A DNA stretch of 64,000 nt, taken from contig CP032507.1 in NCBI GenBank assembly GCA_008375315.1, positions 3,434,071-3,498,070 on the forward strand. The letters are read 5' to 3'. Of this stretch, positions 1 to 15,001 are shown piece after piece (position 1 is the first letter of the stretch; each line of letters opens with the position of its first letter). This stretch comes from Ectothiorhodospiraceae bacterium BW-2. GTDB lineage: Bacteria; Pseudomonadota; Gammaproteobacteria; Thiohalomonadales; Thiohalomonadaceae. The notes beneath the pieces were generated by a model. That model made no database searches, was not told the DNA's origin, and was given only the letters and a program-made list of their open reading frames with translations. The position numbers were made by a program, and so were the translations under genes.

Positions 1-295
1 CCCCGATCCACCACGGTGCCCAAGGCGGCAGTGTCAATGCCAACAGCCAACCGGTAAGTAGCGCCGAGCCATCTAGCAGCGCCGGTTTAATCGGTTTAGC
101 CGCTATCTTGAGTGACAACGCCTCAGCGACAATCGCCGCGATAATGGTCACCAAAAACAGAAATATCGCCGGCCAGCCGTAGTGCCACAACCCAAAAAGG
201 GTCGCCGGTAGCAGCGCTAGGATCACCCAACCCATAGTCGCCGGAACGGAGCGGGCGCTATGGGTAAAAGGCCCAGCCGTGAGTGGTGCCATCAT
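1..295 (-). CDS. rnfD: RnfD, RNF electron transport complex subunit D (5' part, cut by window edge)
   Basis: RnfD is a membrane subunit of the RNF complex that carries covalent FMN and helps couple ion flow to NADH:ferredoxin electron transfer. Only about 98 N-terminal codons are present; the gene runs off the left edge. The translation begins MMAPLTAGPFTHSARS, then a hydrophobic helix, and has the RnfD-typical LLDGSALLTGWLLALTLPP segment. The ATG at 295 overlaps the rnfC stop in an ATGA arrangement, so the two are translationally coupled; the ATG at 292 is an alternative start. The FMN-binding threonine lies outside the window. The family call rests on similarity to known RnfD/RsxD N-termini and on gene order. 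Confidence 0.9.
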   Translation of the reverse strand, partial: MMAPLTAGPFTHSARSVPATMGWVILALLPATLFGLWHYGWPAIFLFLVTIIAAIVAEALSLKIAAKPIKPALLDGSALLTGWLLALTLPPWAPWWIG

Positions 296-6372: not shown

Positions 6373-6516
6373 TTCAGCTAGCTGCTCCCGACTCATCTTT
6401 GCTAGCTGTTCTGCGCTTAATTTGAGATCTTTGAGCGGTGCCTAGCGCTTATCGGGGCGACTCTCAAAAGTGAAACACATTTTGAGGCTAATGTTACGCT
6501 ATGGTGCCGTAAGGTT

Positions 6517-6834
6517 ACGCCCGGAGCACTTTTTAGCTATCTAACAGCCGTCATGCGGGGGAGTGAACCCCGGTATCTAGGTCACAATCCCGCGGGTGCG
6601 GCGATGATTGTGCTGCTGTTGCTATCACTAACAGGGCTCTGTGCTACCGGTATTCTCTATACCACCGATCTTTTTTGGGGGGTAGAGTGGGTCGAAGAGC
6701 TACATGAAGCACTAGCTCATCTGCTGTTAGGTTTAGTCGCGGTACATATTATCGGTGTCATCTTCACCGGCAGACGCCATCAGGAGAATCTGCCTCGGGC
6801 AATGATTACCGGCTATAAACGACCTCTTAATTGA
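6517..6834 (+). pseudogene. 3' fragment of a cytochrome b561-type (dihaem membrane cytochrome b) gene
   Basis: The frame reads ALFSYLTAVMRGSEPRYLGHNPAG, then two hydrophobic helices with histidines in LHEALAHLLLG and VAVHIIG, and ends RAMITGYKRPLN. This matches the C-terminal half of soluble-haem-partner cytochrome b561 proteins (normally about 180-220 aa). Homology-like sequence starts near 6517 and the frame is open only from 6421, with no credible N-terminal haem helices, so the 5' half is missing. An ATG at 6553 could give a 93-aa product, but without two of the four haem-bearing helices. It is probably a remnant left when the neighbouring island rearranged. Confidence 0.6.
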
Positions 6835-7018
6835 CACCATTTAAAGGGCACCCACGGGGGGGTGCCCCTACGCAAACATAAAACTGTGTAGAACGCTGTA
6901 AGCTGTTCACGCATTGCCGCTGCTAGCCCTAGGTTTTCGATTTTGTCGAGAATCGGTTTATCGTACTCATTAGTCAGAACCACCACCTTCTATTGCCTTG
7001 CTGTTACTCGACGACGGT
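6835..7018 (-). repeat. Palindrome plus decayed ATPase fragment at the downstream end of the array
   Basis: This holds a GGGCACCC...GGGTGCCCC palindrome (6846-6868) followed by a minus-strand fragment reading NEYDKPILDKIENLGLAAAM, homologous to the Walker B region of the array genes but diverged from all four. It repeats the composition of the spacers between the copies, so the array unit extends past the last full gene. The b-type cytochrome fragment stops right beside the palindrome. Confidence 0.7.
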
Positions 7019-8587
7019 TTAATCGACCGCCCGCCAATCGGCCTGTAGCAGGTTTCGTTGTACCGTACTAAAGACTAATCCTAGCTCAAACACCCCTTTG
7101 CCGCTGCCGCGATACTTTTTAGCATACTCTTTCTGTTCGATCTGTTTCAGGGCGGCGTTTGGCTCTCCCTGCTCTACCGGAGTTGCCCGCTTGTCGATCT
7201 TAATTTCGGTGATGTAGGTGTAGCCCTCAACCTGAATCACCAAATCGACTTGGCCGTGGTTAGTGATATCTTCGGGAATAATGGTCGCATTGAGGCTGGC
7301 AAAGAAGGCGTAGAGCACGCTGGCGTAGTAGCCTTCCGCTTCGGGCAGGTCGTTGTTGGTGAAGTTGCGCCATGGAATGCTGGCAAACAGGCGCTTGATG
7401 GTGGCGATGAGGTCGGGCAGGTTGGCACTTTGCAGCGCTTTAACCAACGCACTTTTGTAGGCGAGCCGTTGGGCACCAATGCCGCTATAGTCGCTGGAAA
7501 ACTGGTTATAGAGGGCAGTTTGCACCTCGTGATTGGGTATGGTTAGCCGATAGGCAATCTCATCGGCCACCCTAGTCACTTTATCAATCGTCAGATAGCC
7601 GCTCTGAAACAGTAGCGTGATCGGGTCGATATTTTCGATATCAAACGAATCGAGAATCTCTTCACCCACCTCAATAGCCTCCAAATCGGGCAGAAAGTAG
7701 CGATTTTGCTGAAACAGTTTGATTAAAAACGATGGGCTGCCGGTCTCAAACCAGTAGTTGCGGTAGGTTTGATTTTTGGCGATAAATAACAGAATATCGA
7801 AGGGATTGTAAACGGATTCACCAAGAAAATTGTAGCCGTTGTACCAGCGTTTTAGCTTCTCCCAATCGACACCGGTAAGATGTTCTGCAAAGGAGGTTTC
7901 AAGGTCTGTTTGGGTGTAGCCGCAGATGGTGGCATAGTTATCATCGAGAGTCATATCCATTAACTGGTTAATGCCGCTGAAGATACTCACCTTGCTAAAT
8001 TTGGTGACGCCGGTCATAAAGATAAATTGGATTGAAGCATCCATCCCCTTCATCACCGAGTAGAGGTTTTTCACCCCTTCGCGCAGTTCAGCAGCGCGGT
8101 CTGGGTGTTCGATGTTATCGAGGATTGGTTTGTCGTATTCGTCGATAAGAATGACTACCTTTTGGCCATATTTCTCTTCGGCGGCGCGAATGAGATGTTC
8201 AAAGCAGCCGGGGGCATCCTCTTTATCCCAGTCACACTCAATCTGCAGACGGCGCTGGTTGTCATAGAGAATATTGAAAATCCGCTTATCCAGTTGCGCC
8301 CGTGTCTGCATCGAACCACTGGCAAAGTCGATTTTTATCACCGGAAAGGTGCGGCTCCAGTCCCATTTATCTTCGATATACAAGCCGCTAAACAGCCGGC
8401 GATTGCCCTCAAATAGCTCTTTTAAGGTATCGACCAGCAGGCTTTTACCAAAGCGGCGTGGACGGGAGAGGAAGTAGCGCCCCATTTTCTGCGCCATCGG
8501 CAGGAGGATGTCGGTTTTGTCGATATAGACCATCTGCTCATCAATGATGGAGGAGAGAGTGTTAATGCCTATCGGTAGGTGTTTCAT
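7019..8587 (-). CDS. AAA-ATPase-like / PD-(D/E)XK nuclease family protein, array copy 1
   Basis: 522 aa, of the predicted AAA-ATPase (PF09820-like) plus PD-(D/E)XK (PDDEXK_9, formerly DUF1703) family, whose cellular role is not established. Walker A is RRFGKS (44-49), Walker B VVILIDEYD (144-152), a sensor-like stretch TGVTKFSKVSIFSGINQL follows, and the nuclease site is D448 with E461-I-K463. All key residues are intact. This copy is nearly identical to copies 2-4 except for a private block at residues 90-135 (DNA 8183-8320), where SGSMQTRAQLDKRI replaces the AGAVFHSRSELDQEI of the others. The start ATG overlaps the stop of a short upstream ORF by 4 bp; GGAG lies 12 nt upstream. It is the most downstream copy. 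Confidence 0.88.
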   Translation of the reverse strand: MKHLPIGINTLSSIIDEQMVYIDKTDILLPMAQKMGRYFLSRPRRFGKSLLVDTLKELFEGNRRLFSGLYIEDKWDWSRTFPVIKIDFASGSMQTRAQLDKRIFNILYDNQRRLQIECDWDKEDAPGCFEHLIRAAEEKYGQKVVILIDEYDKPILDNIEHPDRAAELREGVKNLYSVMKGMDASIQFIFMTGVTKFSKVSIFSGINQLMDMTLDDNYATICGYTQTDLETSFAEHLTGVDWEKLKRWYNGYNFLGESVYNPFDILLFIAKNQTYRNYWFETGSPSFLIKLFQQNRYFLPDLEAIEVGEEILDSFDIENIDPITLLFQSGYLTIDKVTRVADEIAYRLTIPNHEVQTALYNQFSSDYSGIGAQRLAYKSALVKALQSANLPDLIATIKRLFASIPWRNFTNNDLPEAEGYYASVLYAFFASLNATIIPEDITNHGQVDLVIQVEGYTYITEIKIDKRATPVEQGEPNAALKQIEQKEYAKKYRGSGKGVFELGLVFSTVQRNLLQADWRAVD

Positions 8588-8817
8588 GTAAGTAAGTTAC
8601 TCCGCTTGCCTAAGATAACGGGTTCCCATGCGCCTGCGTGGGAACGAGAAATATAGACCATGTCGTTGTCGATTAACATCGTTATCACCGTAGGGGCAGG
8701 CCCCTGTGCCTGCCCTGATGTCGTCCAATCATAATATGGGTACCGGCAAGATGGGTACCCACGGGGGGGTGCCCCTACGCAAACATAAAACTGTGTAGAA
8801 CGCTGTAAGCTGTTCAC
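8584..8817 (-). pseudogene. Short composite ORF overlapping the start of copy 1
   Basis: 77 codons. The C-terminal third reads MLIDNDMVYI (an N-terminal piece of an array-type ATPase) running into SRSHAGAWEPVILG, which is the translated palindrome. The upstream part is translated palindromic repeat. Its TGA overlaps the ATG of copy 1 (ATGA). It is probably fused debris that stayed open, but it could act as a coupling leader. Confidence 0.45.
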
Positions 8818-8925
8818 GCATTGCCGCTGCTAGCCCTAGGTTTTCGATTTTGTCGAGAATCGGTTTATCGTACTCATTAACCAGAATCACCACCTTCTAT
8901 TGCCTTACTGTTACTCGACGACGGT
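8588..8925 (-). repeat. Array spacer 1 (338 bp): three palindromes between ATPase gene fragments
   Basis: Between copies 1 and 2. It contains a GTTCCC...GGGAAC palindrome (8622-8645), a decayed ATPase start, a GGGCAGG...CCTGCCC palindrome (8694-8715), a GGGTACCC...GGGTGCCCC palindrome (8753-8775), and a Walker B-region fragment whose NEYDKP motif lies near 8860-8885. It is 16 bp longer than spacers 2 and 3 because a short segment around GGGTACC is duplicated (about 8738-8756). Confidence 0.8.
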
Positions 8926-10497
8926 TTAATCGACCGCCCGCCAATCGGCCTGTAGCAGGTTTCGTTGTACCGTACTAAAGACTAATCCTAGCTCAAACAC
9001 CCCTTTGCCGCTGCCGCGATACTTTTTGGCATACTCTTTCTGTTCGATCTGTTTCAGGGCGGCGTTTGGCTCTCCCTGCTCTACCGGAGTTGCCCGCTTG
9101 TCGATCTTGATTTCGGTGATGTAGGTGTAGCCCCCAACCTGAATCACTAAATCGACTTGGCCGTGGTTGGTGATATCTTCGGGAATAATGGTCGCATTGA
9201 GGCTGGCAAAGAAGGCGTAGAGCACGCTGGCGTAGTAGCCTTCCGCTTCGGGCAGGTCGTTGTTGGTAAAGTTGCGCCACGGAATGCTGGCAAACAGGCG
9301 CTTGATGGTGGCGATGAGTTCGGGAATATCGGCTTGTAGCAGCGCATGATAGAGCGTGCGTTGATAGCCGAGTTTTACAGTGGCACTGTTTCGGGTGTAG
9401 CTATCAATGAGGTAGGTATTTAAGGCATGACGCACCTCTTGGTTGGGGATTCCTAAGCGATATAGCTGCATTCCAAAATCTTCGAACCTCTCGCGGATAG
9501 TCAGATAGCCGCTCTGAAACAGCAGTGTGATCGGGTCGATATTTTCGACATCAAACGAATCGAGAATCTCTTCGCCCACCTCAATAGCCTCCAAATCGGG
9601 CAGAAAGTAGCGGTTTTGCTGAAACAGTTTGATTAAAAACGATGGGCTGCCGGTCTCAAACCAGTAGTTGCGGTAGGTTTGATTTTTGGCGATAAATAGT
9701 AAAATATCGAAGGGGTTATAGACTGACTCACCGAGAAAGTTATAGCCGTTGTACCAGCGTTTTAGCTTTTCCCAATCGACACCGGTAAGATGTTCTGCAA
9801 AGGAGGTTTCAAGGTCTGTTTGGGTGTAGCCGCAGATGGTGGCATAGTTATCATCGAGAGTAATATCCATTAACTGGTTAATGCCGCTGAAGATACTCAC
9901 CTTGCTAAATTTGGTGACGCCGGTCATAAAGATAAATTGGATTGAAGCATCCATCCCCTTCATCACCGAGTAGAGGTTTTTCACCCCTTCGCGCAGTTCA
10001 GCTGCGCGGTCTGGGTGTTCGATGTTATCGAGGATTGGTTTGTCGTATTCGTCGATAAGAATGACTACCTTTTGGCCATATTTCTCTTCAGCGGCGGCAA
10101 TCAGATGGGAAAAACAGTTGGGGATGCTTTGACGATCCCAGTCACACACAATCCCCAAGCGCTGCTGGTTGCGATCCAGAATCGCCATAATCTCTTGATC
10201 GAGTTCGCTGCGACTGTGAAATACAGCGCCAGCAAAGTCGATTTTTATCACCGGAAATGTGCGGCTCCAGTCCCATTTGTCTTCGATATACAAGCCGCTA
10301 AACAGCCGGCGATTGCCCTCAAATAGCTCTTTTAAGGTATCGACCAGCAGGCTTTTACCAAAGCGGCGTGGACGGGAGAGGAAGTAGCGTCCCATTTTCT
10401 GCGCCATCGGCAGGAGGATGTCGGTTTTGTCGATATAGACCATCTGCTCATCAATGATGGAGGAGAGAGTGTTAATACCTATCGGTAGGTGTTTCAT
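8926..10497 (-). CDS. AAA-ATPase-like / PD-(D/E)XK nuclease family protein, array copy 2
   Basis: 523 aa, same architecture as copy 1, with the ATPase motifs and the GQVDL...EIK nuclease motif intact. Its private block is residues about 335-392 (DNA 9322-9495): it reads TIRERFEDFGMQLYRLGIPN and onward where copies 1, 3 and 4 share TIDKVTRVADEIAYRLTIPN. This block lies between the ATPase and nuclease domains and carries one extra residue. In the 90-135 region it matches copies 3 and 4, not copy 1. The ATG overlaps a short ORF stop by 4 bp. Confidence 0.88.
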   Translation of the reverse strand: MKHLPIGINTLSSIIDEQMVYIDKTDILLPMAQKMGRYFLSRPRRFGKSLLVDTLKELFEGNRRLFSGLYIEDKWDWSRTFPVIKIDFAGAVFHSRSELDQEIMAILDRNQQRLGIVCDWDRQSIPNCFSHLIAAAEEKYGQKVVILIDEYDKPILDNIEHPDRAAELREGVKNLYSVMKGMDASIQFIFMTGVTKFSKVSIFSGINQLMDITLDDNYATICGYTQTDLETSFAEHLTGVDWEKLKRWYNGYNFLGESVYNPFDILLFIAKNQTYRNYWFETGSPSFLIKLFQQNRYFLPDLEAIEVGEEILDSFDVENIDPITLLFQSGYLTIRERFEDFGMQLYRLGIPNQEVRHALNTYLIDSYTRNSATVKLGYQRTLYHALLQADIPELIATIKRLFASIPWRNFTNNDLPEAEGYYASVLYAFFASLNATIIPEDITNHGQVDLVIQVGGYTYITEIKIDKRATPVEQGEPNAALKQIEQKEYAKKYRGSGKGVFELGLVFSTVQRNLLQADWRAVD

Positions 10498-10787
10498 GTA
10501 AGTAAGTTACTCCGCTTGCCTAAGATAACGGGTTCCCATGCGCCTGCGTGGGAACGAGAAATATAGACCATGTCGTTGTCGATTAACATCGTTATCACCG
10601 TAGGGGCAGGCCCCTGTGCCTGCCCTGATGTCGTCCAATCATAATATGGGTACCCACGGGGGGTGCCCCTACGCAAACATAAAACTGTGTAGAACGCTGT
10701 AAGCTGTTCACGCATCGCCGCTGCTAGCCCTAGGTTTTCGATTTTGTCGAGAATCGGTTTATCGTACTCATTAACCAGAATCACCAC
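10494..10787 (-). pseudogene. Short composite ORF (97 aa) overlapping the start of copy 2
   Basis: The ORF strings together a Walker B piece (MVILVNEYDKPILDKIENLG), two translated palindromes, the N-terminal scrap MLIDNDMVYI, and the translated GTTCCC palindrome SRSHAGAWEPVILG. All stay in one frame, and the stop overlaps the ATG of copy 2. An almost identical ORF precedes copy 3. Confidence 0.45.
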
Positions 10788-10819
10788 CTTCTATTGCCTT
10801 ACTGTTACTCGACGACGGT
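10498..10819 (-). repeat. Array spacer 2 (322 bp)
   Basis: Same order as spacer 1 without the 16-bp duplication: GTTCCC palindrome 10532-10555, GGGCAGG palindrome 10604-10625, GGGTACCC palindrome 10648-10669, then the Walker B fragment. It is nearly identical to spacer 3, indicating recent duplication of a gene-plus-spacer unit of about 1.89 kb. Confidence 0.8.
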
Positions 10820-12388
10820 TTAATCGACCGCCCGCCAATCGGCCTGTAGCAGGTTTCGTTGCACCGTACTAAAGACCAACCCCAACTCAAACACCCCTTT
10901 GCCGCTGCCGCGATACTTTTTGGCATACTCTTTCTGTTCGATCTGTTTCAGGGCGGCATTTGGCTCTCCCTGCTCTACCGGAGTTGCCCGCTTGTCGATC
11001 TTGATTTCGGTGATGTAGGTGTAGCCCCCAACCTGAATCACCAAATCGACTTGGCCGTGGTTGGTGATATCTTCGGGAATAATGGTCGCATTGAGGCTGG
11101 CAAAGAAGGCGTAGAGCACGCTGGCGTAGTAGCCTTCCGCTTCGGGCAGGTCGTTGTTGGTGAAATTGCGCCACGGAATGCTGGCAAACAGGCGCTTGAT
11201 GGTGGCGATGAGTTCGGGCAGGTTGGCACTTTGCAGTGCTTTAACCAACGCACTTTTGTAGGCGAGCCGTTGGGCACCAATGCCGCTATAGTCGCTGGAA
11301 AACTGGTTATAGAGGGCAGTTTGTACCTCGTGATTGGGTATGGTTAGCCGATAGGCAATCTCATCGGCCACCCTAGTCACTTTATCAATCGTCAGATAGC
11401 CGCTCTGAAACAGCAGCGTGATCGGGTCGATATTTTCGATATCAAACGAATCGAGAATCTCTTCACCCACCTCAATATCCTCCAAATCGGGCAGAAAGTA
11501 GCGATTTTGCTGAAACAGTTTGATTAAAAACGATGGGCTGCCGGTCTCAAACCAGTAGTTGCGGTAAGTTTGGTTTTCACTAATAAACAGCAGAATATCG
11601 AACGGGTTATAGACAGCATCACCACAGAAGTTATAGCCGTTGTACCAGTGTTTCAGCTTCCCCCAATCGACACCGGCGAGATGGTCAGCAAGGATCGTCT
11701 CCAAATCGGTTTGGGTGTAGCCACAGATGGTGGCAAATTGCGGACTCAGGGTCATATCCTTTAACTGGTTAATACCACTAAAGATACTCACCTTGCTAAA
11801 TTTGGTGACGCCGGTCATAAAGATAAATTGAATCGAGGCATCCATCCCCTTCATCACCGAGTAGATATTTTTCACCCCTTCGCGCAGTTCAGCAGCGCGG
11901 TCTGGGTGTTCGATGTTATCGAGGATTGGTTTGTCGTATTCGTCGATAAGAATGACTACCTTTTGGCCATATTTCTCTTCGGCGGCGGCAATCAGATGGG
12001 AAAAACAGTTGGGGATGCTTTGACGATCCCAGTCACACACAATCCCCAGGCGCTGCTGGTTGCGATCCAGAATCGCCATAATCTCTTGATCGAGTTCGCT
12101 ACGACTGTGAAATACAGCGCCAGCAAAGTCGATTTTTATCACCGGAAAGGTGCGGCTCCAGTCCCATTTATCTTCGATATACAAGCCGCTAAACAGCCGG
12201 CGATTGCCCTCAAATAGCTCTTTTAAGGTATCGACCAGCAGGCTTTTACCAAAGCGGCGTGGACGGGAGAGGAAATAGCGTCCCATTTTCTGCGCCATCG
12301 GCAGAAGGATGTCGGTTTTGTCAATATAGACCATCTGCTCATCAATGATGGAGGAGAGAGTGTTAATACCTATCGGTAGGTGTTTCAT
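10820..12388 (-). CDS. AAA-ATPase-like / PD-(D/E)XK nuclease family protein, array copy 3
   Basis: 522 aa, motifs intact as in copy 1. Its private block is residues about 210-271 (DNA 11576-11761): KDMTLSPQFATICGYTQTDL and then LADHLAGVDWGKLKHWYNGY, FCGDAVYNPF and ISENQ, where the other three read MDMTLDDNYAT, FAEHLTGVDWEKLKRWYNGY (copy 4 has SGV), FLGESVYNPF and IAKNQ. Outside that block it follows copy 2 in the first half and copies 1 and 4 in the 335-392 region, so it is a mosaic. The ATG overlaps the upstream short ORF by 4 bp. Confidence 0.88.
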   Translation of the reverse strand: MKHLPIGINTLSSIIDEQMVYIDKTDILLPMAQKMGRYFLSRPRRFGKSLLVDTLKELFEGNRRLFSGLYIEDKWDWSRTFPVIKIDFAGAVFHSRSELDQEIMAILDRNQQRLGIVCDWDRQSIPNCFSHLIAAAEEKYGQKVVILIDEYDKPILDNIEHPDRAAELREGVKNIYSVMKGMDASIQFIFMTGVTKFSKVSIFSGINQLKDMTLSPQFATICGYTQTDLETILADHLAGVDWGKLKHWYNGYNFCGDAVYNPFDILLFISENQTYRNYWFETGSPSFLIKLFQQNRYFLPDLEDIEVGEEILDSFDIENIDPITLLFQSGYLTIDKVTRVADEIAYRLTIPNHEVQTALYNQFSSDYSGIGAQRLAYKSALVKALQSANLPELIATIKRLFASIPWRNFTNNDLPEAEGYYASVLYAFFASLNATIIPEDITNHGQVDLVIQVGGYTYITEIKIDKRATPVEQGEPNAALKQIEQKEYAKKYRGSGKGVFELGLVFSTVQRNLLQADWRAVD

Positions 12389-12678
12389 GTAAGTAAGTTA
12401 CTCCGCTTGCCTAAGATAACGGGTTCCCATGCGCCTGCGTGGGAACGAGAAATATAGACCATGTCGTTGTCAATTAACATCGTTATCACCGTAGGGGCAG
12501 GCCCCTGTGCCTGCCCTGATGTCGTCCAATCATAATATGGGTACCCACGGGGGGTGCCCCTACGCAAACATAAAACTGTGTAGAACGCTGTAAGCTGTTC
12601 ACGCATCGCCGCTGCTAGCCCTAGGTTTTCGATTTTGTCGAGAATCGGTTTATCGTACTCATTAACCAGAATCACCAC
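12385..12678 (-). pseudogene. Short composite ORF (97 aa) overlapping the start of copy 3
   Basis: Near-identical to the ORF before copy 2: Walker B piece, translated palindromes, MLIDNDMVYI scrap, then SRSHAGAWEPVILG, ending in an ATGA overlap with copy 3. Confidence 0.45.
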
Positions 12679-12710
12679 CTTCTATTGCCTTACTGTTACT
12701 CGACGACGGT
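12389..12710 (-). repeat. Array spacer 3 (322 bp)
   Basis: GTTCCC palindrome 12423-12446, GGGCAGG palindrome 12495-12516, GGGTACCC palindrome 12539-12560, then the Walker B fragment. It differs from spacer 2 by only a few bases. Confidence 0.8.
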
Positions 12711-14279
12711 TTAATCGACCGCCCGCCAATCGGCCTGTAGCAGGTTTCGTTGTACCGTACTAAAGACTAATCCTAGCTCAAACACCCCTTTGCCGCTACC
12801 GCGATACTTTTTGGCATACTCTTTCTGTTCGATCTGTTTCAGGGCGGCGTTTGGCTCTCCCTGCTCTACCGGAGTTGCCCGCTTGTCGATCTTAATTTCG
12901 GTGATGTAGGTGTAGCCCTCAACCTGAATCACTAAATCGACTTGGCCGTGGTTGGTGATATCTTCGGGAATAATGGTCGCACTGAGGCTGGCAAAGAAGG
13001 CGTAGAGCACGCTGGCGTAGTAGCCTTCCGCTTCGGGCAGGTCGTTGTTGGTGAAGTTGCGCCACGGAATGCTGGCAAACAGGCGCTTGATGGTGGCGAT
13101 GAGTTCGGGCAGGTTGGCACTTTGCAGTGCTTTAACCAACGCACTTTTGTAGGCGAGCCGTTGGGCACCAATGCCGCTATAGTCGCTGGAAAACTGGTTA
13201 TAGAGGGCAGTTTGTACCTCGTGATTGGGTATGGTTAGCCGATAGGCAATCTCATCGGCCACCCTAATCACTTTATCAATCGTCAGATAGCCGCTCTGAA
13301 ACAGCAGTGTGATTGGGTCGATATTTTCGATATCAAACGAATCGAGAATCTCCTCACCCACCTCAATAGTCTCCAAATCGGGCAGAAAGTAGCGGTTTTG
13401 CTGAAACAGTTTGATTAAAAACGATGGGCTGCCGGTCTCAAACCAGTAGTTGCGGTAGGTTTGATTTTTGGCGATAAATAACAGAATATCGAAGGGATTG
13501 TAAACGGATTCACCAAGAAAATTGTAGCCGTTGTACCAGCGTTTTAGCTTCTCCCAATCGACACCGCTAAGATGTTCTGCAAAGGAGGTTTCAAGGTCTG
13601 TTTGGGTGTAGCCGCAGATGGTGGCATAGTTATCATCGAGAGTCATATCCATTAACTGGTTAATGCCGCTGAAAATGCTCGCCTTGCTAAATTTGCTCAC
13701 CCCGGTCATAAAGATAAACTGAATTGCCGCATCCATCGCCTTCATCACCGAGTAGAGGTTTTTCACCCCTTCGCGCATTTGGGCGGCTCGTTCGGGGTGT
13801 TCAATGCTATCAAGAATCGGCTTATCGTACTCATCAATGAGGATGACCACCTTTTGGCCATATTTCGCTTCAGCGGCGGCAATCAGATGGGAAAAACAGT
13901 TGGGGATGCTTTGACGATCCCAGTCACACACAATCCCCAAGCGCTGCTGGTTGCGATCCAGAATCGCCATAATCTCTTGATCGAGTTCGCTGCGATGGTG
14001 AAATACAGCGCCAGCAAAGTCGATTTTTATCACCGGAAAGGTGCGGCTCCAGTCCCACTTATCTTCGATATACAAGCCGCTAAACAGCCGGCGATTGCCC
14101 TCAAACAGCTCTTTGAAGGTATCGACCAGCGTGCTTTTGCCGAAGCGGCGCGGGCGCGACAGAAAATAGGCTCCCGGTTGGGCGGCCAGTTTTCCGACCA
14201 ATGCGGTTTTATCAATATAGACCATATCGTTATCACGAATTTTGGCCAGTGTTTGAATGCCTATCGGTAGGTGTTTCAT
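12711..14279 (-). CDS. AAA-ATPase-like / PD-(D/E)XK nuclease family protein, array copy 4
   Basis: 522 aa, first gene of the array in the transcription direction. Walker A (RRFGKS), Walker B (VVILIDEYD) and the D-ExK nuclease site are intact. Its private blocks are the N-terminus (residues 9-52, DNA 14124-14255: QTLAKIRDNDMVYIDKTALV against NTLSSIIDEQMVYIDKTDIL) and residues about 137-207 (DNA 13659-13871: AKYGQ, SIEHPERAAQM, KAMDAAIQ, VSKFSKAS). From about residue 275 it is nearly identical to copies 1 and 3. The ATG overlaps the stop of a 43-aa ORF by 4 bp. Confidence 0.88.
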   Translation of the reverse strand: MKHLPIGIQTLAKIRDNDMVYIDKTALVGKLAAQPGAYFLSRPRRFGKSTLVDTFKELFEGNRRLFSGLYIEDKWDWSRTFPVIKIDFAGAVFHHRSELDQEIMAILDRNQQRLGIVCDWDRQSIPNCFSHLIAAAEAKYGQKVVILIDEYDKPILDSIEHPERAAQMREGVKNLYSVMKAMDAAIQFIFMTGVSKFSKASIFSGINQLMDMTLDDNYATICGYTQTDLETSFAEHLSGVDWEKLKRWYNGYNFLGESVYNPFDILLFIAKNQTYRNYWFETGSPSFLIKLFQQNRYFLPDLETIEVGEEILDSFDIENIDPITLLFQSGYLTIDKVIRVADEIAYRLTIPNHEVQTALYNQFSSDYSGIGAQRLAYKSALVKALQSANLPELIATIKRLFASIPWRNFTNNDLPEAEGYYASVLYAFFASLSATIIPEDITNHGQVDLVIQVEGYTYITEIKIDKRATPVEQGEPNAALKQIEQKEYAKKYRGSGKGVFELGLVFSTVQRNLLQADWRAVD

Positions 14280-14407
14280 GTAAGTAAGTTACTCCGCTTG
14301 CCTAAGATAACGGGTTCCCATGCGCCTGCGTGGGAACGAGAAATATAGACCATATCGTTGTCGATTAACATGGCCACACTATTCATGCCTATCGGTAGAT
14401 TTCTCAT
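14276..14407 (-). pseudogene. N-terminal remnant of a fifth array ATPase fused to the GTTCCC palindrome
   Basis: 43 codons: MRNLPIGMNSVAMLIDNDMV is clearly the start of an array-type ATPase (compare MKHLPIGIQTLAKIRDNDMV), then the frame enters the palindrome (14314-14337) as SRSHAGAWEPVILG and stops in an ATGA overlap with copy 4. It shows how the shorter scraps in the other spacers arose: a paralogue was truncated at the palindrome. Confidence 0.65.
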
Positions 14408-14425
14408 GTTATGACTCCATTACTC

Positions 14426-14479
14426 CTACTCCAGATAGTCGGTGATGCTCAGTTTTGGGTTGAGTTTAGGTTTTAACAT
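14426..14479 (-). pseudogene. N-terminal scrap of a Uma2-type nuclease gene
   Basis: A 17-codon ORF, MLKPKLNPKLSITDYLE then stop, resembles the N-terminus of Uma2-family (DUF820) restriction-endonuclease-like proteins (motif K-L-S-x-x-D-Y-L). The rest of the gene is missing; the ATPase scrap starts 18 bp further on. Confidence 0.4.
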
Positions 14480-14731
14480 ACACTTTACCTCTGCGGCGCT
14501 GTCGCTCGACATCAATAAAATCCTGTTCGATTAGCAGATACTCCTATAGCGATGGCAGGGTGCGGTAGATGTCAGCTTTGTGGTGTTTATCGTAAAAGCG
14601 GGTCGATTTAAAGAGCACTTCGACTAGTCGCACCGGTTGGGTTTGGTAGTGCGGATTTCGGTGATCTTTTCGCCCGCTAAATAGTCGGCAACGCTCAATT
14701 TTGGCAGTTTTTTGGATGGAGAGCTTAACAT
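14466..14731 (-). pseudogene. Uma2-family (DUF820) nuclease gene, deleted, frameshifted and stopped
   Basis: The ATG at 14731 opens MLSSPSKKLPKLSVADYLAGE, a Uma2-like N-terminus. The middle is deleted, and in another frame the text resumes QTQPVRLVEVLFKSTRFYD and YRTLPSL, then an in-frame TAG, then EYLLIEQDFIDVERQRR, which is the family's C-terminal region. A frameshift, a stop and an internal deletion leave no functional product. Confidence 0.6.
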
Positions 14732-14895
14732 GGGGGGATACCTTTACATTTTGGTGTAAATTTTGGTGAAAAGAGCCGTTCAGCACGCTACACTCTGGCC
14801 ATCATACGACAAAACCACGAGACAACTACCGCAACCTAACTCGCTGCCGTTGGTGACATCGCGAGACAGAAAGGAAAAGGGTGGCCAATAAATCG

Positions 14896-14904
14896 TGATA
14901 TAAT
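14896..14904 (+). promoter_or_regulatory. Extended -10 promoter candidate for lspA
   Basis: TGATATAAT gives a perfect TATAAT (14899-14904) with the extended TGn. No good -35 is seen. It would leave a leader of about 90 nt before lspA. Confidence 0.4.
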
Positions 14905-15001
14905 AACGGCCTTCAGCCATCGAAGCTATAGTAATCGAATGGCAGACGACAGTTATAAATTTCCTTTTAAAACAATTAGTTAACTAAAGCAGTTACCATT
15001 A

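What the first reader, a model, noticed from the sequence alone, without database searches (positions are those of the whole stretch)
7019..14279. Four tandem ATPase-nuclease genes, each with its own private divergent segment
The four 522-523 aa copies are nearly identical except for sharply bounded blocks. Copy 1 differs alone at residues 90-135, copy 2 at 335-392, copy 3 at 210-271, and copy 4 at 9-52 and 137-207. Catalytic ATPase and nuclease motifs are kept in all. Blocks of clear divergence inside otherwise identical genes are what segmental gene conversion or cassette shuffling from a wider paralogue pool would leave. Neutral divergence after duplication would scatter the changes. This could be a diversifying system, for example a defence or self/non-self recognition locus. 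That function is inference; the mosaic itself is visible.
Basis: partly seen in the sequence, partly recalled or inferred. Interest (0 to 1): 0.78.

Follow-up and report, generated by a model that had tools for sequence, protein, structure and literature searches.

The report
Segment-shuffled ATPase-nuclease gene arrays
Four neighbouring bacterial genes for the same ATP-driven nuclease really are patchworks with one or two foreign-looking segments each, and dozens of relatives here and in unrelated bacteria vary most at the same two surface segments, as if a set of related nucleases were being diversified by gene-to-gene copying; their function is unknown.

Summary
Confirmed, and wider than reported. 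The four genes (AAA-ATPase_like + PDDEXK_9, "DUF1703") carry five sharply bounded tracts. Synonymous divergence is about 0.8-1.65 inside the tracts and about 0.1 outside, so the tracts are old alleles exchanged by recombination, not fast-evolving patches. No donor copy remains in this one-contig genome. The genome holds about 32 further family genes at eight other places, in three more subfamilies, with the same kind of mosaic. In subfamily B, 12 of 15 module pairs show all four allele combinations, and a ~330-bp tract is shared exactly by copies 1.6 Mb apart.

Paralogue sets from other phyla diverge mainly at the same two segments: a helical hairpin between strand 2 and Walker B, and the winged-helix/linker region. 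Silent sites agree (p = 0.00025 and 0.022). The predicted fold is an NLR-like (STAND-type) ATPase joined to a nuclease domain resembling Wolbachia CidB/CinB.

Best reading: a co-existing repertoire of ATPase-nucleases, homogenised and re-assorted by gene conversion, with two surface modules kept diverse. Diversifying selection, defence or self-recognition is not shown. Intragenic recombination among DUF1703 paralogues was already reported in Cardinium and midge Rickettsia; the fixed structural modules and combinatorial, cross-phylum evidence appear new.

The parts
7019..8587 (-). copy 1 (c1), 522 aa AAA-ATPase_like + PDDEXK_9 protein
8188..8321 (-). private tract of copy 1 (residues ~90-135): helical hairpin between strand beta2 and Walker B
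   Evidence: pattern; dS 0.8-1.0, dN/dS ~0.5-0.6; structure
8926..10497 (-). copy 2 (c2), 523 aa
9310..9499 (-). private tract of copy 2 (residues ~334-396): winged-helix wing plus following helices leading to the nuclease
10820..12388 (-). copy 3 (c3), 522 aa
11559..11780 (-). private tract of copy 3 (residues ~204-277), mostly silent plus about 16 residue changes
12711..14279 (-). copy 4 (c4), 522 aa; first gene of the array in transcription order
14117..14259 (-). private tract of copy 4, N-terminal (residues ~8-54, includes Walker A, motif kept)
13651..13867 (-). second private tract of copy 4 (residues ~138-207, includes Walker B), almost only silent changes
   Evidence: dN/dS ~0.05
8588..8925 (-). 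spacer between copies 2 and 1; near-identical spacers at 10498-10819 and 12389-12710
8786..8896 (-). remnant of a family member (Walker-B fragment, 57-59% identical to residues 143-179); also at 6879-6989, 10680-10790, 12571-12681
   Evidence: tblastn
14333..14407 (-). N-terminal remnant of another family member (MRNLPIGMNSVAMLIDNDMVYI...), upstream of copy 4; its 3' part recurs in every spacer
8636..8646 (-). CGTTCCCACGC element about 50-60 bp upstream of each copy (also 10546, 12437, 14328)

Best explanation
The array is one of nine places in this genome that carry genes for an NLR-like (STAND-type) ATPase fused to a PD-(D/E)XK nuclease (PF09820 + PF08011, formerly DUF1703). Shown: the genes multiply as tandem units; they exchange segments by homologous recombination or gene conversion within and between loci; most of each gene is kept near-identical inside an array, while old, strongly diverged segment alleles persist in different combinations. 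Shown: over many genomes the divergence is concentrated in two structural modules, the helical hairpin between beta2 and Walker B and, more weakly, the winged-helix wing plus linker helices before the nuclease. Inferred: the modules are specificity surfaces (trigger recognition or partner choice) on an ATP-controlled nuclease, so an array is a repertoire of simultaneously encoded variants rather than a switch with one expression site. Most likely use (inference, about 40%): conflict with mobile DNA, phages or competitors, with nuclease activation on recognition.
For: Domains, motifs and purifying selection in the background. Block structure with dS 0.8-1.65 inside and ~0.1 outside. About 36 family genes at nine places on a single contig. 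In subfamily B, 12 of 15 module pairs show all four allele combinations and 17 of 18 haplotypes are distinct; 90 of 153 pairs have permutation-significant shared runs, including an exact tract (alignment columns 287-617) between loci 1.6 Mb apart, and a near-identical 136-bp spacer occurs at the same two loci. The same segments diverge in paralogue sets of Methylomicrobium, Methylotuvimicrobium, Desulfamplus, Haliscomenobacteraceae, Thiomicrospira and others. Silent differences at amino-acid-identical codons are enriched at residues 81-140 (p = 0.00025) and 321-380 (p = 0.022), circular-shift test over 17 sets. In subfamily B, about 25% identical to the window's copies, the entropy peak is the same hairpin. 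Fold: best matches are archaeal STAND-type ATPases (Z 15.7-18), then plant NLR resistosomes and CED-4 (Z 13-15); the nuclease part matches CidB/CinB (Z 12-13). Helix 96-114 varies on one face only, as a surface element would. For a conflict role: subfamilies C and D sit beside caspase/CHAT genes, and D directly follows a diversity-generating retroelement.
Against: dN/dS is below 1 in every tract (0.04-0.62), and two of the five tracts in the window are mostly or almost silent, so no positive selection is shown. Fast-evolving modules could stay as islands simply because conversion needs sequence identity. No donor of the window's tracts was found. No defence-database match, no defence-island context for the window's array (neighbours are Rnf genes, a PAS kinase plus sigma-54 activator pair, an FKBP-type gene) and no functional data. 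Fold similarity shows no function.
Confidence: 0.6

Rival explanations
1. Heterology-limited concerted evolution without selection for diversity. Gene conversion homogenises stretches that are similar enough; loosely constrained segments (hairpin, linker) fall below the identity needed and persist as divergent islands that occasionally move when conversion spans them.
For: dN/dS below 1 in all tracts; the two modules are also the most variable parts between genomes (entropy 2.5 and 2.4 bits against 1.0-1.9 elsewhere); tract edges sit at the edges of conserved sequence.
Against: Three of four copies share the same allele at each module, so modules are converted readily; two tracts of the window (137-207, 203-277) lie in conserved sequence; alleles re-assort freely in subfamily B.
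Confidence: 0.3
2. The gene is itself a selfish, mobile element. Its ATPase-nuclease cuts at or near related copies, and repair from another copy spreads and mixes the genes; the mosaic is a by-product.
For: The PF09820 + PF08011 architecture appears to be what is elsewhere called CR-NTPase8 + CR-REase7, described as mobile CR-effector-like elements and as the Tribolium Medea1 factor (PMC11342252; PMC6387759; that the Pfam and CR names coincide is my inference). Patchy distribution: only 2 of 19 other genomes of the same order have a member. Copies at nine places; one gene-plus-spacer unit is shared between distant loci.
Against: No common element ends beyond gene plus short spacer at the loci compared; most copies sit in tandem arrays; no cut-site or homing evidence.
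Confidence: 0.25
3. Oligomer insulation: co-expressed paralogues diversify the surfaces through which protomers meet, so that each assembles only with itself.
For: Resembles NLR/CED-4 oligomerising ATPases; variable helix face; overlapping genes in arrays L033 and L038 suggest co-expression.
Confidence: 0.15
4. Expression-site switching (antigenic-variation type), with one expressed copy and silent donors.
For: Remnants of family members lie in the spacers.
Against: Nearly all copies are intact full-length ORFs, under purifying selection in the window, each with its own start, some overlapping as operons; no recombinase gene among the neighbours examined.
Confidence: 0.05
5. Short-read assembly artefact.
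For: Near-identical repeats are prone to misassembly.
Against: Single contig; private blocks are unique to one copy; many independent genomes show the same pattern.
Confidence: 0.02

Closest known systems
DUF1703 (AAA-ATPase_like + PDDEXK_9) expansion in Cardinium cCpun and midge Rickettsia (Siozios et al. 2019, PMC6387759)
   Same: Same two-domain architecture, many paralogues in one genome, intragenic recombination detected between paralogues.
   Different: There the paralogues average 39% identity and are discussed as possibly secreted symbiosis factors (10 of 25 with predicted signal peptides). The words tandem and hypervariable do not occur in its main text. Here arrays are near-identical outside sharply bounded modules at fixed structural positions, seen across phyla.
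CR-effector-like elements, Tribolium Medea1 and Wolbachia CifB nucleases (PMC11342252)
   Same: An NTPase plus REase architecture; the nuclease domain's best structural neighbours here are CidB and CinB.
   Different: Those are eukaryote-directed or selfish killer elements; nothing ties the window's genes to a eukaryotic host.
STAND ATPases: archaeal PABY2304/SSO1545, bacterial Avs, plant NLR, CED-4/Apaf-1
   Same: Predicted NBD-HD-WHD fold (Z up to 15.7 for the window's copy, 18 for subfamily B). Plant NLR clusters are also known for exchange between paralogues (own knowledge).
   Different: No separate repeat-type sensor domain; the variable parts lie inside the ATPase module and linker.
HsdS target-recognition-domain shuffling in type I restriction systems
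   Same: Works like it: exchange of variable modules between conserved stretches gives combinatorial variants (own knowledge).
   Different: No shared fold, no invertase or modification enzyme seen; the modules carry no positive charge that would suggest DNA reading.

Membership tests
DUF1703: AAA-ATPase_like (PF09820) + PDDEXK_9 (PF08011) | both Pfam domains above curated cut-off, in this order | tested here: met
   204.7 and 66.6 bits for copy 1; 206 and 66.3 for copy 4
DUF1703: AAA-ATPase_like (PF09820) + PDDEXK_9 (PF08011) | atypical Walker A RPRRFGKS and Walker B DEYD (as described in PMC1913061) | tested here: met
   LSRPRRFGKS and ILIDEYD in all four copies
DUF1703: AAA-ATPase_like (PF09820) + PDDEXK_9 (PF08011) | PD-(D/E)XK catalytic D...ExK | tested here: met
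   GQVDLVIQ...EIK in all four copies
DUF1703: AAA-ATPase_like (PF09820) + PDDEXK_9 (PF08011) | ATP hydrolysis and nuclease activity | not testable with these tools
   needs a bench assay
STAND/NLR-type signalling ATPase | NBD-HD-WHD fold of the ATPase module | tested here: met
   AF2 model pLDDT 89.8; Z 15.7 to 2qen/2fna, 13-14 to NLRs and CED-4; subfamily B Z 18.0; predicted fold only
STAND/NLR-type signalling ATPase | separate C-terminal sensor/repeat domain | tested here: not met
   protein goes from winged helix and linker helices directly to the nuclease domain; therefore not filed as an NLR
STAND/NLR-type signalling ATPase | trigger-dependent oligomerisation | not testable with these tools
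   no oligomer modelling or biochemistry available
Known anti-phage defence system (PADLOC-DB 2.0.0) | significant match to a defence protein model | tested here: not met
   best E 0.0049 (GajA, 74 residues) and 0.038
Known anti-phage defence system (PADLOC-DB 2.0.0) | protects against phage | not testable with these tools
   needs phage challenge
Silent-cassette antigenic variation | one expressed full gene plus truncated silent donors | tested here: not met
   four intact ORFs in the window and about 33 apparently intact in the genome
Diversity-generating retroelement target | variable segment differs from a template at adenines only | tested here: not met
   differences in the window's tracts fall on all four bases, with a length change in one

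The most novel reading that the evidence does not exclude
A bacterial, genome-wide repertoire of compact NLR-like ATPase-nucleases whose recognition surfaces (two modules inside the ATPase and its linker) are re-assorted by gene conversion: an innate-immunity-like or kin-recognition repertoire in many phyla that existing defence catalogues have missed.
Probability: 0.25. Interest if true: 0.88.

Novelty: new variant of a known kind. Interest (0 to 1): 0.62.

Why it matters
The family is widespread, often multi-copy and without known function. Showing that its paralogues diverge at two fixed structural modules, and that alleles of these modules are re-assorted between loci, points to where specificity would reside and makes it testable by module swaps. 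If the modules read a trigger, this would be a bacterial counterpart of NLR gene clusters with a nuclease as output. It would also bear on the origin of the CifB and Medea1 nucleases, whose nearest architecture is this one.

Tried and rejected
Donor search: no other subfamily-A gene in the genome (the rest about 30% identical), no viral contig, and 33 homologues elsewhere about equally close to private and majority alleles, so no donor can be named. Non-overlap of the five tracts across copies, which might suggest one donor tiled over the copies: p = 0.049 by simulation, too weak to use. DNA reading through an Orc1/Cdc6-like hairpin and wing (recalled resemblance): the modules are neutral to slightly negative and not rich in Lys/Arg, so not favoured. 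Retroelement mutagenesis of the tracts: differences fall on all four bases, rejected. Mobile-element ends: no shared boundaries beyond short spacers, apart from subfamily D flanks. Promoters: no sigma-70-like match in the array, fewer than chance expects, uninformative. No solved structure by sequence, no NCBIfam model. Three literature searches failed on syntax or returned nothing. The plain Foldseek list was led by AAA+ proteins with large rmsd and was not used alone. No species name could be obtained for the genome.
Full report
OBSERVATION. Copies 1 and 4, the two scanned, are AAA-ATPase_like (PF09820) plus PDDEXK_9 (PF08011) proteins, and all four share the motifs. At DNA level they are 87-91% identical overall, but the differences fall into blocks: copy 1 alone differs at gene nt 267-400, copy 2 at 999-1188, copy 3 at 609-830, copy 4 at 21-163 and 413-629. 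Among 303 columns where one copy differs from three, the identity of the odd copy changes 43 times along the gene, against 223 (minimum 190) in 10,000 shuffles. The spacers of 322-338 bp are near-identical, so the unit of duplication is about 1.9 kb. One short stretch near nt 757-800 groups copies 2 and 3 against 1 and 4, so 'private' is a slight overstatement.

WHAT THE BLOCKS ARE. Inside the blocks synonymous divergence is 0.79-1.65 substitutions per site; in the remaining 225 codons it is about 0.08-0.12 uncorrected. Both silent and replacement changes are therefore old, and the blocks are segments from a long-separated lineage, not patches of rapid protein evolution. dN/dS is 0.35-0.62 in the N-terminal block, in 90-136 and in 333-397, and only 0.04-0.15 in 137-207 and 203-277. 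In the background, replacement differences are almost absent (2-5 per pair), so all four copies are under purifying selection as proteins. No other gene of this subfamily exists in the genome. Among 33 homologues elsewhere the closest share about 70% of the conserved part, and taken together they are about equally close to the private and the majority allele at the hypervariable blocks. The donors are unknown.

THE REST OF THE GENOME. The window lies in a single 4.07-Mb contig with about 36 family genes at nine places: subfamily A (the window), B (five places, 21 genes, at least three of them broken), C (two places, eight genes), D (one place, three genes). All show block mosaics. In B the evidence for recombination is formal: with modules defined on the common alignment and alleles at 88% identity, 12 of 15 module pairs show all four combinations and 17 of 18 copies have a distinct combination. 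Of 153 pairs, 90 have a shared run of polymorphic sites longer than expected from shuffled sites, among them a 202-site exact run (alignment columns 287-617) between copies 1.6 Mb apart. These loci also share a 136-bp spacer almost letter for letter. The C-terminal module mostly follows the locus, while the N-terminal, hairpin and wing modules cross loci. In the window's own array the four-combination test is negative, as it must be when every allele is private; exchange is inferred there from block structure and dS.

OTHER GENOMES. Relatives were fetched from many phyla. Tandem or multi-copy sets in Methylomicrobium, Methylotuvimicrobium, Desulfamplus, Thiomicrospira, Haliscomenobacteraceae and other MAGs show divergence in the same places. 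Over 17 sets the ranking of 20-residue windows by replacement divergence agrees (Kendall W 0.34). To avoid misalignment effects I counted only silent differences at codons whose amino acid is identical in both genes: these too are enriched at residues 81-140 (p = 0.00025) and 321-380 (p = 0.022) in a circular-shift test that keeps tract autocorrelation. The N-terminal block is not enriched by this test (p = 0.30). The sets were picked for having close paralogues nearby, and several come from the same genome, so the p-values are indicative.

STRUCTURE. The model of copy 1 is good (mean pLDDT 89.8, pTM 0.86). Residues 90-136 are two helices (96-114, 125-140) between strand 83-87 and the Walker B strand 144-149. 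Residues 334-396 are the wing hairpin of the winged helix and the helices that lead to the nuclease. Helix 96-114 varies with helical periodicity (none of 5,000 shuffles as strong), as a surface helix would. In subfamily B (about 25% identical, model pLDDT 84.5) the highest variability is at 95-160, again the helices between strand 87-93 and Walker B strand 158-163. The ATPase part aligns best with archaeal STAND-type ATPases 2qen and 2fna (Z 15.7 for A; 18.0 and 16.6 for B) and then with plant NLR resistosomes and CED-4 (Z 13-15); the C-terminal part aligns with the nuclease domains of Wolbachia CidB and CinB (Z 12-13).

MECHANISM. Shown: tandem duplication, ectopic exchange of segments, persistence of old module alleles in new combinations, concentration of divergence at two structural modules. 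Inferred: the modules are specificity surfaces, and the copies act side by side as a repertoire, because nearly all are intact and some overlap as operons. Defence or another conflict role is my preferred guess at about 40%. For it: subfamilies C and D lie beside caspase/CHAT genes, and two D genes lie just downstream of a diversity-generating retroelement or its remnant. Against it: no PADLOC match, a housekeeping neighbourhood for the window's array (Rnf genes, a PAS kinase with a sigma-54 activator, an FKBP-type protein) and dN/dS below 1. A neutral alternative, conversion limited by sequence heterology, would also leave islands at fast-evolving segments; it explains less well why three of four copies share each module allele and why two tracts of the window sit in conserved sequence. 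A selfish-element reading is supported by patchy distribution (2 of 19 other genomes of the order) and by the literature on CR-like elements.

PRIOR WORK. Knizewski et al. 2007 defined the two domains and the unusual Walker A (PMC1913061). Siozios et al. 2019 reported 25 paralogues in Cardinium cCpun with intragenic recombination, the same in midge Rickettsia, a homologue in the Medea element, and no known function (PMC6387759). A 2024 study places CifB nucleases next to CR-NTPase8 + CR-REase7 elements (PMC11342252). A 2023 review lists PF09820 among domains found in RADAR, PARIS1 and Old-tin (PMC10952713). Not found in the searched library: fixed hypervariable modules, combinatorial alleles or cross-phylum arrays. 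Only open-licence papers were searched.

VERDICT. The recombination explanation is right; the functional suggestion is plausible but unproven. New variant of a known kind.

Noticed in passing
L035 (G000:C1:983000-999000): A diversity-generating retroelement lies in the subfamily-D locus: a reverse transcriptase gene (996406-997425, PF00078), a template at 996273-996396, and variable repeats at the 3' ends of two FGE-sulfatase-domain genes (987893-988016 in a caspase-PEGA-FGE gene; 997918-998041). Mismatches fall on template adenines (coding strand) in 11 of 12 and 16 of 17 cases. Two ATPase-nuclease genes sit directly downstream of this cassette or its remnant.
   Followed up: partly
L034 (G000:C1:870000-885000): Two caspase-domain genes (PF00656, with PEGA and weak CHAT matches) lie between the two subfamily-C ATPase-nuclease genes.
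   Followed up: partly
window 14345-14960 (minus strand): Upstream of copy 4 lies a degenerate reading frame with in-frame stops (LVEVLFKSTRFYDKHHKADIYRTLPSL*EYLLIEQD...) that looks like a Uma2/DUF820-type nuclease remnant (recognised from memory, not tested), next to the N-terminal remnant of a family member.
   Followed up: partly
G000:C1:94405-97455: Ten copies of a roughly 130-bp element related to the middle of the array spacers (GTAGGGGC...GCCCCTAC type) lie close together within 3 kb; a MITE-like repeat cluster.
   Followed up: no
L036 (G000:C1:1217500-1237400) spacers: Palindromic GTTCCCACG...CGTGGGAA elements lie at six places in the subfamily-B array and at only two other sites in the genome; degenerate versions flank copies in other arrays, the window's included. 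They might promote recombination or act as terminators.
   Followed up: partly
L036: G000:C1:1222266-1223456, 1229269-1231070, 1233886-1234908: Three broken copies (truncated or split) inside the nine-gene subfamily-B array: birth and death of copies is under way.
   Followed up: partly
window 6373-15001: The sigma-70-like promoter scan finds none where about ten are expected in shuffles; odd, possibly a composition effect.
   Followed up: no
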